Origin: Chryseobacterium taichungense
GTDB lineage: Bacteria; Bacteroidota; Bacteroidia; Flavobacteriales; Weeksellaceae
Assembly: GCF_900109935.1 (NCBI RefSeq)
Contig: NZ_FOBV01000007.1
Span: 124,001-188,000 of the forward strand
Length of the DNA: 64,000 nucleotides
Direction: 5' to 3'
Shown: piece after piece, positions 54,754-60,975 of the stretch
Layout: every line of letters starts with the position of its first letter
Position numbering within the stretch: the stretch's first letter is position 1
Notes under the pieces: generated by a model
The model's database searches: none
Told to the model about the DNA's origin: nothing
What the model saw: only the letters and a program-made list of their open reading frames with translations
Translations under genes and position numbers: made by a program

Positions 54754-56019
54754 TTAAAAATGATCTAAAACTTCTATGATCTGATGATAGATATAATCCA
54801 GCTGTTCTGCAGTAATGCAGTAAGGAGGAACCAGATACATTGTATTTCCCAGCGGGCGCAGGATAATTCCTCTTTTTAAAAATTCTTTGTATAATTTTTT
54901 TCCGGTTGTGTTAAAATAAGATGTTTGGTAATTGTTTATCACTTCCCACGCTATGATTGTTCCTGTTTGCCGCACATGATCAACTTTTGAATGCTGCCGC
55001 AGAACTTCTGAAAATGCTGTATGTTTTTTAACAATGAGATCAATATTACGAAGTGTTTCAGCCTGTAGCAAAAGTTCCATACTTGCAAGTGCTGCTGTAC
55101 ATGCCAATGGATTAGCCGTAAAAGAATGCCCGTGAAATAGCGTTTTATGTTGATCATCGGATAAAAAAGCTTCAAAAATTTCCTGAGAACAACTGGTGAT
55201 GCCCATTGGCATTGTTCCGCCTGTTAGTCCTTTAGAAAAACACATAATATCAGGTTGTTCCGAAAGGTGATCAGCGGCAAAAAGTTTTCCCGTTCTTCCA
55301 AAACCAGTAAAAACTTCATCCTGAATCATCAGAATTTTTTGCTCTCTGCAGAATTTCATTAATTCCGACAGATCTTCTGCTTTATGCATCAGCATTCCTG
55401 CAGCTCCCTGGATAAGGGGTTCGTAAATAAAACATGCAATCTCATCTGAAATACTTTTGATGAAAGTCTTAAGATCGTCCAGATTTTCTACGGTCGGAAC
55501 ATCAATAAAGATAACTTCAAAAAGCATTTCCCCGAAAGGATTTGTCCATGCACTTCTCCCGCTTACCGACATCGCCCCGAAAGTGTCGCCGTGATATGCA
55601 TTTTTAAAAGCAAGAATTTTTGTTTTTTTATTATCGTGATTATAAGCATATTGAATACATATTTTTAAAGCAACTTCTATCGCGGTGGAACCATTATCAG
55701 AATAAAAAATTTTCTTCTGATTTTCGGGTAGGATTTTTAAGAGATTTTCGGAAAGCTGTATTGCCGGCTCATGGGTAAATCCTGCAAAAATAACCTGTTC
55801 CAAAGTATGCAGCTGTTCGGAGACTCTTTTTGCAATATAAGGATGTGCATGGCCATGAAGAGTAACCCACCATGAAGAAACCGCATCTATATATTGTTTC
55901 CCCTCGTCATCAAAAAGATAAATACCCTCTCCCCTTATTATCGGAATAATTTCATCAGCTGTTTTCATTTGGGTGTAAGGATGCCAGTTTACAGCTCTGT
56001 CACGTTCAGATAAATTCAT
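54754..56019 (-). CDS. bioA: Adenosylmethionine-8-amino-7-oxononanoate aminotransferase
   Basis: The 421-residue class III PLP transaminase has WHPYTQM at the start, SSWWVTLHGHAHPYIA, GSTAIEVALKIC, QDEVFTGFGRTGKLFA and the Schiff-base lysine in CFSKGLTGGTMPMGIT. WHPYTQM and the WW pair are typical of BioA. It converts KAPA to DAPA with S-adenosylmethionine as amino donor. It is the last of five genes in the biotin operon, 43 bp after bioB. Confidence 0.95.
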   Translation of the reverse strand: MNLSERDRAVNWHPYTQMKTADEIIPIIRGEGIYLFDDEGKQYIDAVSSWWVTLHGHAHPYIAKRVSEQLHTLEQVIFAGFTHEPAIQLSENLLKILPENQKKIFYSDNGSTAIEVALKICIQYAYNHDNKKTKILAFKNAYHGDTFGAMSVSGRSAWTNPFGEMLFEVIFIDVPTVENLDDLKTFIKSISDEIACFIYEPLIQGAAGMLMHKAEDLSELMKFCREQKILMIQDEVFTGFGRTGKLFAADHLSEQPDIMCFSKGLTGGTMPMGITSCSQEIFEAFLSDDQHKTLFHGHSFTANPLACTAALASMELLLQAETLRNIDLIVKKHTAFSEVLRQHSKVDHVRQTGTIIAWEVINNYQTSYFNTTGKKLYKEFLKRGIILRPLGNTMYLVPPYCITAEQLDYIYHQIIEVLDHF

Positions 56020-56062: not shown

Positions 56063-57046
56063 TTAGCATATCGTTTTTTCTTTCACCATTGGTTTAAGGC
56101 CCAGTGTTTTCAGCATTTGTAAATCTTCTGAAACTCCCGGATTTGGGGTAACAAGTAAAGTTTCTCTTTCTCCTGTAAAAATGGAATTCGCTCCAGCCAT
56201 AAAACACCAGCCCTGCTCAAATTCTGTCATTTCGATCCTCCCTGCGCTTAGACGAATCATTGATGAAGGCATGATAATCCTTGCTGTGGCGATCATTCTT
56301 ACCATTTCCCAGGTATCTGTTTTCTCATTGTTTTCTAGCGGTGTGCCTTTTACCCTCGCTAAGGCGTTAATTGGAACCGACTCCGGGTGCTTTGGTATTG
56401 TTGCCAGCGTTAAAAGCATCGAAATCCTGTCGCCATGCGTTTCCCCCAACCCGATAATTCCTCCGGAGCAAACGGTAATACCCGCTTTTCTTACATTGTT
56501 GATGGTATTGATTCTATGATCAAAAGTTCTTGTAGAAATAATTTCGTCATAATATTGCTCAGAAGTATCCAGATTGTGATTATAGGCATATAATCCGGCT
56601 TTCTGAAGGCGAATAGCCTGTTCTTCTGTAAGCATTCCCAAGGTACAGCAAACTTCCATTCCCAGATCATTGACGCCTTTTACCATGTCAATTACGCGGT
56701 CGAAATCCCGATTGTTACGAACTTCCCTCCATGCTGCAGCCATACAGAAACGGGATGAACCTCCTTCTTTTGCTTTTCTGGCGTGTTCGATAACCGTTTC
56801 CGTCGGTAGCAATGCCTGAACTTTGATGTTGGTGTGATATCTCGCTGCCTGTCCGCAATATGAGCAGTCCTCGGGACATCCGCCAGTCTTTATTGACAAT
56901 AAAGTAGACATCTGTACTTCTTCCGGATTATGCCACTCACGGTGTACGGTTGCTGCCTTGTATATAAGTTCTAACAACGGAAGATGATAAATTTGTTCAA
57001 TTTCTTCTTTTGTCCAGTCGTTTCTTAGTGTTGATGTATCTTTCAT
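56063..57046 (-). CDS. bioB: Biotin synthase (radical SAM)
   Basis: The 327-residue protein has [18 protein letters not shown], the CxxxCxxC site for the SAM-bound [4Fe-4S] cluster, [21 protein letters not shown] and [12 protein letters not shown]-type elements. Cysteines for the second, sulphur-donating cluster are present (C133, C193 region). It inserts sulphur into dethiobiotin. Its start overlaps the bioD stop by 4 bp. Confidence 0.97.
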
Positions 57047-57696
57047 AATTTTTCTAATTGTTTAACAGTTGTTTCCATCTGTTCTTTTGTTATTTCGTCT
57101 AAATAAGGAACTTTCATAATTTTTGTTTTTTGATGAATATTTTTAACAATAATCTTTTCCGTGTCGGCAGGAAAATTTCCATTAAGAATTAAATACTTTA
57201 GTTTAATTTTTCTTTGATGTAAAGCCATGATGGACAATAAAGTATGATTAATACAGCCTAAATAATTCTTCACGACAAGCACAGCCGGTATATTAAGCTT
57301 TTCAATCAGATCAATAATAAAATCACTATCATTCAGCGGAACCATAAGACCTCCTGCCCCTTCGATAATCAGGTTATTTTGGGTTTCTGGGATTTTAAAT
57401 TGATTTAAATTAATTTCAATTCCTTCTTCCTTTGCCGATTGATGAGGTGACGCGGCTAATTGGAATCTATACGTTTCAGGATGGCAGATTATATCTTCGC
57501 CGGTCCAGTTTTTTATTTTCATACTGTCGGAAAAATCCAGATCACCTGATTGTACAGGTTTCCAGTAATCTGCGTTGAAATATTTTGTCAGTATGGCAGA
57601 ACAGACGGTTTTTCCTACTTCAGTGCCAATGCCGGTCACGAAAAGCAATTGTTGTCCGGAGTTTTGTATTTCTGATTTTTTTTCTTGTAAAATCAT
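57043..57696 (-). CDS. bioD: Dethiobiotin synthetase
   Basis: The 217-residue protein has an ATP-binding P-loop [12 protein letters not shown] (about 20-31), [22 protein letters not shown] and [14 protein letters not shown], all standard BioD motifs. It closes the ureido ring of dethiobiotin from DAPA and CO2 using ATP. It lies 4 bp after bioF and overlaps bioB by 4 bp, so the three are tightly coupled. Confidence 0.95.
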
Positions 57697-57700
57697 GTTC

Positions 57701-58810
57701 TTAAGTAAAATCTTTAATTATCCTGGTCAAACCAATTATTTCTTCCTTTTTGTTAAAGCTATGAAGACAAATTCTGAGTCTTTCCGTGCCTTCTTTTACT
57801 GTTGGACTGAAAATCGTATAGGCTAAAAATCCATTTTCAGACAAAGTATTTTTTAATGTGCTTAATTGTTCATTATCAGGAATGATTATCGCTTGTATCG
57901 GACTTTTTTCATTAGACGGAGTTTTTATATTCTGATTGTGGAAAATTTTAATGTTTTCAAAAAGTTGAATTGATAATTTTCTATTTTCATTAAAAAAATA
58001 ATAACCTTTAAAAATGCTCATCCACAAAAAATCATGAGATGAGGTTGTGTAAATAAAAGGTGAAGCAAAATTGATAAGGTAAGATTTTATCAAAGAATTG
58101 GTCAGGATAACAGCTCCGCCTGTTCCGAAGGCCTTTCCATAGGTGATAACGGTTGCAAGAACTGTTTTCTGAAGCTGAAACTGATCGATAAGACCATATC
58201 CGAAAACCCCGAAAGAATGGGCTTCATCCACAATCAATTCTGCATTGTATTTCTCTGCGAGCTTAGCAATTTCAGGTAACGGTGCAATATCCCCATCCAT
58301 TGAATACAGGCTCTCAACGACAATATAGACCTGACCTTCTTGTCTTTTTAGAATATCTTCCAGATGATCACAGTCATTATGTTTGAATTTTAACTTTTTG
58401 CAGTTAGACATTCTACACGCATCATGCACCGATCTATGGATTTTTTCGTCAATAATGATCGTATCATGCCGCCCCGGAAGTGCAGATAATAAAGCAAGAT
58501 TGGCGCTGTACCCCGAAGGAAAAAGAAGAGCAGATTCATATTGATGTTCCTTTGCAATAAAATCTTCTGTCTCTGTGACAATTATTGAATTTCCGCTGAT
58601 CAGCCGCGATCCGGTACTGCCCATGATTAATTCAGGATTTTCCTGAACTGTTTTCAGTAATAAACCCTGAAAGTCATTGTTTCGTGCAAATCCCAGGTAA
58701 TCATTGGAATAAAAATCAAGTCCATCTCTCCTGACATGTAAAGTTCTTAAAATGCCGTTTTGCTTCCTCTTTTCTAAGGCTTTCTCAAATTGTAGGAAAT
58801 CTTTAAGCAT
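57701..58810 (-). CDS. bioF: 8-amino-7-oxononanoate synthase
   Basis: I use the ATG at 58810 (369 residues), overlapping the upstream gene by 8 bp; an ATG 48 bp further upstream is less likely. RRDGLDFYSNDYLGFARN, GSTGSRLISGNS, VDEAHSFGVFG and the Schiff-base lysine in VITYGKAFGTGGAV are the alpha-oxoamine synthase motifs. Order in the bio operon favours BioF over glycine C-acetyltransferase. It joins pimeloyl-ACP or -CoA with alanine. The source of the pimeloyl group is not evident in this window. Confidence 0.93.
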   Translation of the reverse strand: MLKDFLQFEKALEKRKQNGILRTLHVRRDGLDFYSNDYLGFARNNDFQGLLLKTVQENPELIMGSTGSRLISGNSIIVTETEDFIAKEHQYESALLFPSGYSANLALLSALPGRHDTIIIDEKIHRSVHDACRMSNCKKLKFKHNDCDHLEDILKRQEGQVYIVVESLYSMDGDIAPLPEIAKLAEKYNAELIVDEAHSFGVFGYGLIDQFQLQKTVLATVITYGKAFGTGGAVILTNSLIKSYLINFASPFIYTTSSHDFLWMSIFKGYYFFNENRKLSIQLFENIKIFHNQNIKTPSNEKSPIQAIIIPDNEQLSTLKNTLSENGFLAYTIFSPTVKEGTERLRICLHSFNKKEEIIGLTRIIKDFT

Positions 58811-59426
58811 AATTTTCCTGAAAAACTTCTTGTGAGATAGAATTAATCCATTGTTCATGCAGATCTTTCTCTATTTTTAAAATTTGTTCTGCGTGAATTT
58901 TCCAATCAGGTGAGAATTTGTCTAACTGAGCAATCATTTCTTCCAGATGGCCTTCTTCCTCCAGGATAATTGATTTCACCATGACTTTTGAAGAATATTT
59001 TGTAAGAATCTGCTGATAGATGGGATATAATTCATCTGCACGAACCTCAATCGCATAGGTTACAAAAAGATAAGCAGCGTATTTTAATTCTTCTTTATTT
59101 AAACTGAAATTTTGCTGTAAATATTTACAAGTTTTAATATCAAGATGGTGAAGATATCTTTTGGTAGAAGTAGATCCAAGCAATTCGCTATTATTGTAAT
59201 TTTCACAAATTGATGAAGTAATCTTAAGAATTTGCTTTTTAAGGTAGTACGCATGTCTGTGCTCTTCCGCGGCATGTTTTAGCTGAATAATATTTACTTC
59301 TGATGGATGCTCACAGGCCGAAATTTTCCTTGCTCCGGCATTTTCCATATATGATAATGTATTCAGCCATTTTGCGTGAGTAACATTATGCTGAACAATT
59401 CTTTCTAAAAGATAATCAATTGTCAT
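58803..59426 (-). CDS. Ferritin-like diiron protein at head of biotin operon, function unassigned
   Basis: The 207-residue all-helical protein has a diiron ferritin-like ligand pattern: E28, then E55-x-x-H58 (in AAEEHRHAY), E127 in YAIEVRADEL, and E157-x-x-H160 (in LEEEGHLEEM). It overlaps bioF by 8 bp and is the first gene of the operon. No bioC, bioH, bioW or bioI is in the window. A diiron oxygenase or desaturase-like role in making the pimeloyl precursor is conceivable, as would be a storage or regulatory role. I do not recognise the family by name. Confidence 0.8.
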   Translation of the reverse strand: MTIDYLLERIVQHNVTHAKWLNTLSYMENAGARKISACEHPSEVNIIQLKHAAEEHRHAYYLKKQILKITSSICENYNNSELLGSTSTKRYLHHLDIKTCKYLQQNFSLNKEELKYAAYLFVTYAIEVRADELYPIYQQILTKYSSKVMVKSIILEEEGHLEEMIAQLDKFSPDWKIHAEQILKIEKDLHEQWINSISQEVFQENYA

Positions 59427-59442
59427 TTTATTTTGTTTTGCT

Positions 59443-59450
59443 CAAAAGTA
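59443..59450 (-). promoter_or_regulatory. -7 promoter box of the biotin operon
   Basis: On the minus strand TACTTTTG fits TAnnTTTG exactly, 16 bp before the ATG. The -33 region is occupied by the ATGGT repeats below. Confidence 0.5.
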
Positions 59451-59462
59451 GTATATTGCCGG

Positions 59463-59480
59463 ATGGTTATATGGTACCAG
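59463..59480. promoter_or_regulatory. Possible MocR operator
   Basis: ATGGT occurs twice, 8 bp apart (59463, 59471), and the second is part of a palindrome TGGTACCA (59472-59479). MocR regulators often bind short direct repeats containing ACCAT/ATACCA, the complement of this motif. It lies between the divergent start codons. Confidence 0.4.
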
Positions 59481-59490
59481 TTTTAAGATA

Positions 59491-60975
59491 ATGAATAGTC
59501 CGGCTGAAATTCCCTATCAAAGTTTTATAACAATAGATAGATCTTCTGAAGTTTCTGTGTATATGCAGATTTCAAATCAGTTGATCAATGCCATCCAGCG
59601 CGGATTTCTTCCCTTCGGAACAAAACTTCCGGGAACAAGAACATTAAGTATGATTCTGGCAGTTCATCGCAATACAATTGTCGCTGTTTATGATGAATTA
59701 TTGGCTCAGGGATGGATTGAAAGCTTTCCTAACAAAGGAACATTCATAATCGGAAAGGATCAGAATAAGGATGTAGCAGTTAAAAGTTTCAAGAAAAATC
59801 ATCTCGAAAATTATCCCAAAACAACCGGATTTTCCTTTAAAACTTCGAATATTTTGGACAATCCTTTCGAATATTCTGAATGCGAATATATTTTTAATGA
59901 TGGAATTCCTGATGTCCGGCTGACACAGGTAGATCAATATTCACGGAATTACAGTTCTATTTTAAAGCGAAAAGCCTATAAAATCGGTCAGTATAATCAG
60001 GATGGAAGTGAATTTTTTAAACAAAATCTATCTCAATACTTAAATTTATCAAGAGGATTGCCGATTTCAAAAAATAATCTTCTCATTACAAGAAGCACGG
60101 AGATGAGCATGTACATTGTTTCAGAAATTCTTTTATCTGCAGGTGATACTGTACTCGTTGGCGAATTAAGTTATTTTTCTGTCAATATGATTTTTCAGCG
60201 GACCGGCGTGAAGATTTCTTCTGTATCAATTGATGAAGACGGAATCAATGTTGAAGAAGTTCGCAGGATTTGTGAAAAACAGAAAATCAGGATGTTATAT
60301 CTCACGCCACATCACCACTATCCTACTACGGTTACGCTAAGTGCTGCCAGAAGGCTTGAACTTTTAAATCTTGCACATGAATATGGTTTTATCATTTTGG
60401 AAGACGATTACGATTATGATTTCCATTATGATAAAAGCCCGATTCTTCCTCTGGCAAGTGCAGATACAGAAGGAATGGTAATTTATATCGGGTCGTTTGG
60501 AAAATCACTAGCACCCGGTTTTCGCACAGGCTTTATCGTAGCGCCGGAAAATATAATGGCCGAAATGAGAAAATACCTTGGAATCATTGACAGGCAGGGC
60601 GATATTTTAATGGAACATGTTCTTGGCGAAATGATTGCTGAAGGGGAAATCAACCGTTATCTGAAAAAGTCTCTTAAAATTTATAAGGAACGCCGAGATT
60701 ATTTCACTTTTTTATTGAAAGAATATTTTGGTGAATCTATTGATTTTAAGGTTCCTTCCGGTGGATTAGCAGTCTGGACAGAATGGAAAGTTCCTGTGAA
60801 TCTCATGAAACTTTCAAAACAGTGTGTGAAAGACAATCTTTTCATCCCGAAAACCTTACTCTATCAAAACCGTAATCTTACTGCGATGCGGTTAGGATTT
60901 GGAAATTTTAATGATCATGAAATGAAAACAGCGGTTGAAATTCTTTCACATAATATTAAAACCATATCGGAATGA
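59491..60975 (+). CDS. MocR-type GntR regulator with aminotransferase domain
   Basis: The 494-residue protein has a winged HTH at about 15-85 (VYMQISNQLINAIQRGFLPFGTKLPGTRTLSMILAVHRNTIVAVYDEL). A linker and a fold-type I aminotransferase-like domain follow, with YLTPHHHYPT, DDYDYDF and the PLP-lysine in GSFGKSLAPGF. Such proteins sense PLP adducts of amino compounds. It is divergent from the biotin operon by 64 bp and so is the obvious candidate regulator. KAPA or DAPA, both amines, are possible ligands (inference). Confidence 0.92.
   Translation: MNSPAEIPYQSFITIDRSSEVSVYMQISNQLINAIQRGFLPFGTKLPGTRTLSMILAVHRNTIVAVYDELLAQGWIESFPNKGTFIIGKDQNKDVAVKSFKKNHLENYPKTTGFSFKTSNILDNPFEYSECEYIFNDGIPDVRLTQVDQYSRNYSSILKRKAYKIGQYNQDGSEFFKQNLSQYLNLSRGLPISKNNLLITRSTEMSMYIVSEILLSAGDTVLVGELSYFSVNMIFQRTGVKISSVSIDEDGINVEEVRRICEKQKIRMLYLTPHHHYPTTVTLSAARRLELLNLAHEYGFIILEDDYDYDFHYDKSPILPLASADTEGMVIYIGSFGKSLAPGFRTGFIVAPENIMAEMRKYLGIIDRQGDILMEHVLGEMIAEGEINRYLKKSLKIYKERRDYFTFLLKEYFGESIDFKVPSGGLAVWTEWKVPVNLMKLSKQCVKDNLFIPKTLLYQNRNLTAMRLGFGNFNDHEMKTAVEILSHNIKTISE

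What the first reader, a model, noticed from the sequence alone, without database searches (positions are those of the whole stretch)
58803..60975. Diiron ferritin-like protein heads a biotin operon without a visible pimeloyl-making gene
Seen: a 207-residue protein with E28, ExxH (55-58), E127, ExxH (157-160) is the first gene before bioF, overlapping it by 8 bp, followed by bioD, bioB and bioA. None of bioC, bioH/G/J/K/V, bioW, bioI or bioZ is in the window. Known: several unrelated enzymes supply the pimeloyl group in different bacteria, including an oxygenase (BioI P450). Inference: a nonheme diiron enzyme could cleave or oxidise an acyl chain to give the pimeloyl unit. A simpler helper role is possible.
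Basis: partly seen in the sequence, partly recalled or inferred. Interest (0 to 1): 0.75.

Follow-up and report, generated by a model that had tools for sequence, protein, structure and literature searches.

The report
BioE–BioL biotin operon in Chryseobacterium

Summary
A 207-residue protein with all six diiron ligands heads a bioE-F-D-B-A operon in a Chryseobacterium-like genome, divergent from a MocR-type regulator. The idea that it makes the pimeloyl group is also right, and already published. The protein matches BioE, the diiron oxygenase reported from Elizabethkingia and Chryseobacterium (Xu et al., PNAS 2025, cited in Zhang et al., Adv Sci 2025, PMC12915131), which cleaves C14–C18 acyl-ACP/CoA at C7–C8 to pimeloyl-ACP/CoA. 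The neighbouring regulator is BioL. All six published EmBioE iron ligands and 13 of 17 published functional residues map to the window protein at a constant +2 offset; the six ligands are invariant in 109 sequences. In 296 Flavobacteriales genomes every BioE genome has bioB (29/29). No BioC, BioH or BioW above cut-off is found in this genome; its one P450 does not look like BioI. A 42-bp conserved bioE–bioL spacer is the likely BioL operator. Side lead: 50 of the 63 bioB-bearing genomes without BioE carry a divergent FabF-type synthase, mostly in or near the bio cluster and never together with BioE. It is a candidate for another pimelate route.

The parts
58803..59426 (-). bioE: ferritin-like diiron oxygenase (207 aa; ligands E28, E55, H58, E127, E157, H160), pimeloyl-ACP/CoA supply
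   Evidence: ORF and ligands; ligands invariant in 109 sequences; published EmBioE residues map at +2 offset; AF2 model resembles aldehyde deformylating oxygenases, Z 15.4, and MiaE, Z 14.6
57701..58810 (-). bioF: 8-amino-7-oxononanoate synthase, 8-bp overlap with bioE
   Evidence: best NCBIfam model bioF, 290.6 bits, under its cut-off of 426; start read from sequence
57043..57696 (-). bioD: dethiobiotin synthase
   Evidence: TIGR00347 over cut-off
56063..57046 (-). bioB: biotin synthase
   Evidence: TIGR00433 398.5 bits over cut-off 225
54754..56019 (-). bioA: AON-DAPA transaminase
   Evidence: TIGR00508 553 bits over cut-off 405
59491..60975 (+). bioL: MocR-type (GntR HTH + aminotransferase) repressor of the biotin genes; R50 conserved, PLP-lysine at K338 (K340 in EmBioL)
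   Evidence: Pfam/NCBIfam; residues; divergent neighbour of bioE in 80 of 80 loci
59443..59484 (.). conserved bioE-bioL spacer, CAAAAGTAGTATATTGCCGGATGGTTATATGGTACCAGTTTT: probable BioL operator plus divergent promoters (TACTTTTG on the - strand fits the Bacteroidota -7 box TAnnTTTG)
   Evidence: 69 distinct spacers aligned; 1 match in window against 0 in 100 shuffles; operator role inferred from the published PbioE EMSA probe

Best explanation
The gene is bioE. Its product is a ferritin-like diiron oxygenase that binds a long-chain acyl-ACP or acyl-CoA and, with O2 and reductant, oxidatively cleaves the C7-C8 bond to give pimeloyl-ACP/CoA. BioF, BioA, BioD and BioB from the same operon then convert this to biotin. 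BioL, encoded divergently, binds the spacer and represses the operon; it is reported to sense 8-amino-7-oxononanoate. Shown here: gene order, ligands, fold class, fixed linkage, co-occurrence with bioB, and no BioC, BioH or BioW match over cut-off. Shown elsewhere, for orthologues: catalysis, complementation, repression. Inferred: that this orthologue has the same substrate range and that the 42-bp element is the operator.
For: All six EmBioE ligands (E26, E53, H56, E125, E155, H158) map to E28, E55, H58, E127, E157, H160, and 13 of 17 published functional residues are identical. The six ligands are invariant in 109 sequences. Chryseobacterium indologenes, where deleting bioL gave biotin auxotrophy, has the same locus with BioE 71-72% and BioL 76-77% identical. 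bioL<bioE>bioF holds in 80/80 loci, and in other families BioE adjoins bioF or bioA. BioE implies BioB in 29/29 order-level genomes; the two sampled genus members without BioE also lack BioB. AF2 model pLDDT 86.9, best matches aldehyde deformylating oxygenases and MiaE. No BioC, BioH or BioW over cut-off.
Against: The EmBioE sequence itself was not at hand, so identity to it was not measured; four published CoA-face positions differ (F24Y, K46Q, R87K, Q88R). The founding PNAS paper is not held. Helical-bundle Z-scores near 13-15 are only suggestive. No biochemistry exists for this exact protein.
Confidence: 0.96

Rival explanations
1. Helper role: the protein is an accessory ferritin-like or iron protein for BioB or BioF and does not make pimelate; a hidden BioC/esterase route does.
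For: Weak BioC- and BioH-like hits exist in the genome; the TIGR02072 cut-off can miss divergent BioC proteins.
Against: The best BioC hit (57.5 bits against a cut-off of 185) lies between haemin-transport-type genes (their naming is from sequence reading); BioH hits are at or below 78 bits against 207. Orthologue biochemistry shows direct pimeloyl formation and bypass of BioC-BioH in E. coli.
Confidence: 0.02
2. The genome's P450 is a BioI-like enzyme that supplies pimeloyl, with the diiron protein redundant.
For: One P450 is present, with CYP102 (P450 BM3) chains among its PDB matches.
Against: It is not linked to bio genes; no BioI entry appears among its listed best 60 PDB matches, which are led by LUTEIN DEFICIENT 5 and CYP3A4 chains; no NCBIfam cut-off is met.
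Confidence: 0.02

Closest known systems
BioE of Elizabethkingia meningoseptica / Chlamydia psittaci, with BioL (Xu et al. PNAS 2025 e2501226122, not held; Zhang et al. Adv Sci 2025, PMC12915131)
   Same: Six iron ligands, ferritin-like fold, lipid-pocket residues (L22, Y117, I124, L131), operon with bioF/D, divergent MocR repressor, same family and reported genus
   Different: Here bioE-F-D-B-A read as one run, while the paper treats bioEFD and bioBA as two units in E. meningoseptica; some CoA-face residues differ
BioI (Bacillus subtilis P450)
   Same: Oxidative cleavage of long acyl-ACP to pimeloyl-ACP
   Different: Heme P450, unrelated fold and cofactor
Cyanobacterial aldehyde deformylating oxygenase and MiaE
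   Same: Ferritin-like diiron fold
   Different: Different substrates; 12-17% sequence identity

Membership tests
BioE diiron oxygenase | Six diiron ligands at EmBioE positions E26, E53, H56, E125, E155, H158 | tested here: met
   All six at +2 offset, invariant in 109 sequences
BioE diiron oxygenase | Ferritin-like (ADO-like) helical fold | tested here: met
   AF2 pLDDT 86.9; ADO-type chain Z 15.4, MiaE Z 14.6, 174 residues, 2.7-3.0 A
BioE diiron oxygenase | Linkage to biotin genes and BioL | tested here: met
   80 of 80 loci and the order- and phylum-level matches
BioE diiron oxygenase | More than 40% identity over more than 85% of EmBioE (the paper's criterion) | tested here: inconclusive
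   EmBioE sequence not available; C. indologenes orthologue 71-72% identical over full length; 13/17 published EmBioE residues identical
BioE diiron oxygenase | Converts C14-C18 acyl-ACP/CoA to pimeloyl-ACP/CoA | not testable with these tools
   Shown for EmBioE and CpBioE
BioL (MocR repressor) | GntR HTH with R50, aminotransferase domain with PLP-lysine | tested here: met
   R50 present; lysine at 338 in SFGKS, against K340 in EmBioL
BioC-BioH pathway | BioC and BioH in the genome | tested here: not met
   No match over either curated cut-off; divergent forms below cut-off are not excluded
BioW pathway | BioW gene | tested here: not met
   No match; controls ring in B. subtilis and M. jannaschii
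BioG esterase | PF04301 match | tested here: inconclusive
   No match, but no control genome rang either
BioI P450 | P450 fold with bio linkage | tested here: not met
   The BioE gene is not a P450; the only P450 is unlinked
BioZ (KAS III) pathway | bioZ in the biotin operon or genome | not tested
   None in the window operon by inspection; genome not searched for BioZ

The most novel reading that the evidence does not exclude
BioE is one of two mutually exclusive pimelate routes in Flavobacteriales. The other uses a divergent FabF-type (KAS I/II) synthase encoded in or near the bio cluster of most bioB-bearing genomes that lack BioE. In 296 genomes this synthase (profile match at E <= 1e-90) occurs only with bioB (50/50) and never with BioE. 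If it makes a pimeloyl precursor it would be a route distinct from BioC-BioH, BioI/BioW, BioZ (KAS III) and BioE. The distribution follows phylogeny in part, and a publication outside the held library is possible.
Probability: 0.35. Interest if true: 0.65.

Novelty: already known. Interest (0 to 1): 0.22.

Why it matters
The pathway is of real interest: a diiron enzyme supplying pimelate, regulated by BioL. It was published in 2025 for this very group, so this locus adds a further orthologue, a conserved candidate operator sequence and a co-occurrence survey. The side observation on the FabF-type synthase could make the pimelate source of many other Flavobacteriales testable.

Tried and rejected
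Pfam, NCBIfam and PDB sequence searches with BioE gave nothing usable, so these libraries do not yet hold this family. Foldseek alone gave no E below 0.001; the VIA-align second look was needed. Plasmid search for BioE: no match. The founding PNAS paper and PNAS reference 36 are not held. Second BioE-like match in G252 (L120, 26%, several stops) and the phylum matches L134 and L135 were dropped as chance or remote. Further copies of the spacer motif in the genome are not far above the reversed-pattern control count (36 against 24), so no second BioL site is claimed. The genome P450 and the best BioC hit were examined and rejected as pimelate genes.

Full report
Observation. The protein at 58803-59426(-) is as described: 207 aa, E28, E55xxH58, E127, E157xxH160, overlapping bioF by 8 bp (bioE stop codon 58803-58805, bioF start 58810), followed by bioD, bioB and bioA on the same strand. 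The window belongs to a 4.48-Mb genome rated 100% complete whose nearest named relatives are Chryseobacterium species.

Identity. A literature search found the answer directly: Zhang et al., Adv Sci 2025 (PMC12915131), with the founding paper Xu et al., PNAS 2025 (its reference 37, not held). BioE is a non-heme diiron oxygenase of Elizabethkingia and Chryseobacterium that cleaves long-chain acyl-ACP/CoA between C7 and C8 to pimeloyl-ACP/CoA. BioL is a MocR-family repressor, often next to it. EmBioE's ligands E26, E53, H56, E125, E155, H158 fall on the window protein's six ligands at a constant offset of two. Of 17 residues named in the paper (ligands, lipid pocket, CoA face), 13 are identical; the four differences are all on the published CoA face. 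BioL's R50 is conserved and its PLP-lysine is K338 against K340. The six iron ligands are invariant in 109 sequences. C. indologenes, in which the authors deleted bioL, has the same arrangement with BioE 71-72% and BioL 76-77% identical.

Fold. AlphaFold2 on 14 sequences gave pLDDT 86.9 and an all-helical model. The best structural neighbours are aldehyde-deformylating-oxygenase-type proteins (Z 15.4) and the tRNA hydroxylase MiaE (Z 14.6), followed by cyanobacterial ADO (Z about 13). This agrees with the published comparison to cADO, though Z values for helical bundles need care.

Linkage and distribution. bioL<bioE>bioF is present in 80 of 80 loci from the genome collection. In a 296-genome order sample BioE occurs in 29 genomes, all of which have bioB. 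The two sampled same-genus genomes without BioE also lack bioB. BioE also occurs, next to bioF or bioA, in other families of the class. The formal probability for 29/29 is about 6e-17 but is inflated by shared ancestry.

Other pimelate genes in this genome. BioC: best 57.5 bits against a cut-off of 185, between haemin-transport-type genes. BioH: best 77.6 against 207. BioW: none, with working controls. BioG: none, but controls also silent, so inconclusive. One P450, unlinked and without BioI among its best 60 solved structures. BioC and BioH relatives below cut-off cannot be excluded by these models alone.

Regulatory DNA. The bioE-bioL spacer holds a strongly conserved stretch, CAAAAGTAGTATATTGCCGGATGGTT..ATGGTGCCAGTTTT, in 69 distinct sequences. 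In the window it is at 59443-59484 and matches nothing else there. The published EMSA probe is an about 50-bp sequence in the bioE promoter, so this is the probable BioL operator. TACTTTTG on the minus strand fits the Bacteroidota -7 box (my own knowledge; inference).

Side result. Of the 63 bioB-bearing genomes without BioE, 50 carry a divergent FabF-type synthase (NCBIfam fabF 108-176 bits against 494 for the three examined) with what reads as an intact Cys-His-His set (C157, H291, H326, invariant in the three; role from knowledge of KAS enzymes). It is within 300 bp of bioB in 27 of 51 copies and within 5 kb in 4 more. Of seven of the remaining copies inspected, four lie beside bioA and one beside bioD. 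At this threshold it never occurs with BioE or without bioB. This is a lead only.

Verdict.

Noticed in passing
L141:8380-9552, L142:7874-8998, L143:9978-11138; also L158, L159, L160, L163, L164: A divergent FabF-type (KAS I/II) synthase with Cys-His-His conserved sits in the bio clusters of Flavobacteriales that lack BioE: 50 of 63 bioB-positive BioE-negative genomes, 0 of 29 BioE genomes, 0 of 204 bioB-negative genomes. Candidate pimelate-supply enzyme.
   Followed up: partly
order-level genomes G018, G029, G035, G044, G124, G148, G158, G187, G211, G259, G271, G287, G291: 13 bioB-positive genomes have neither BioE nor the FabF-type synthase; three of them (G029, G035, G044) have a full-length BioC match at 127-206 bits, the other ten have no identified pimelate source.
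   Followed up: no
L144:5884-7380: A BioL homologue (47% identical) lies near bioB in a genome without a BioE match, suggesting MocR control of biotin genes beyond BioE genomes.
   Followed up: no
window:60999-63789: A metallo-beta-lactamase-type exonuclease-like gene and a DNA-ligase-like gene follow bioL on the same strand; the first lies beside bioL in only 12 of 80 loci. Assignments from sequence reading.
   Followed up: no
window:51894-53433: Two adjacent Ferritin_2 (PF13668) proteins, the first with a Tat signal; not related to BioE by Pfam.
   Followed up: no
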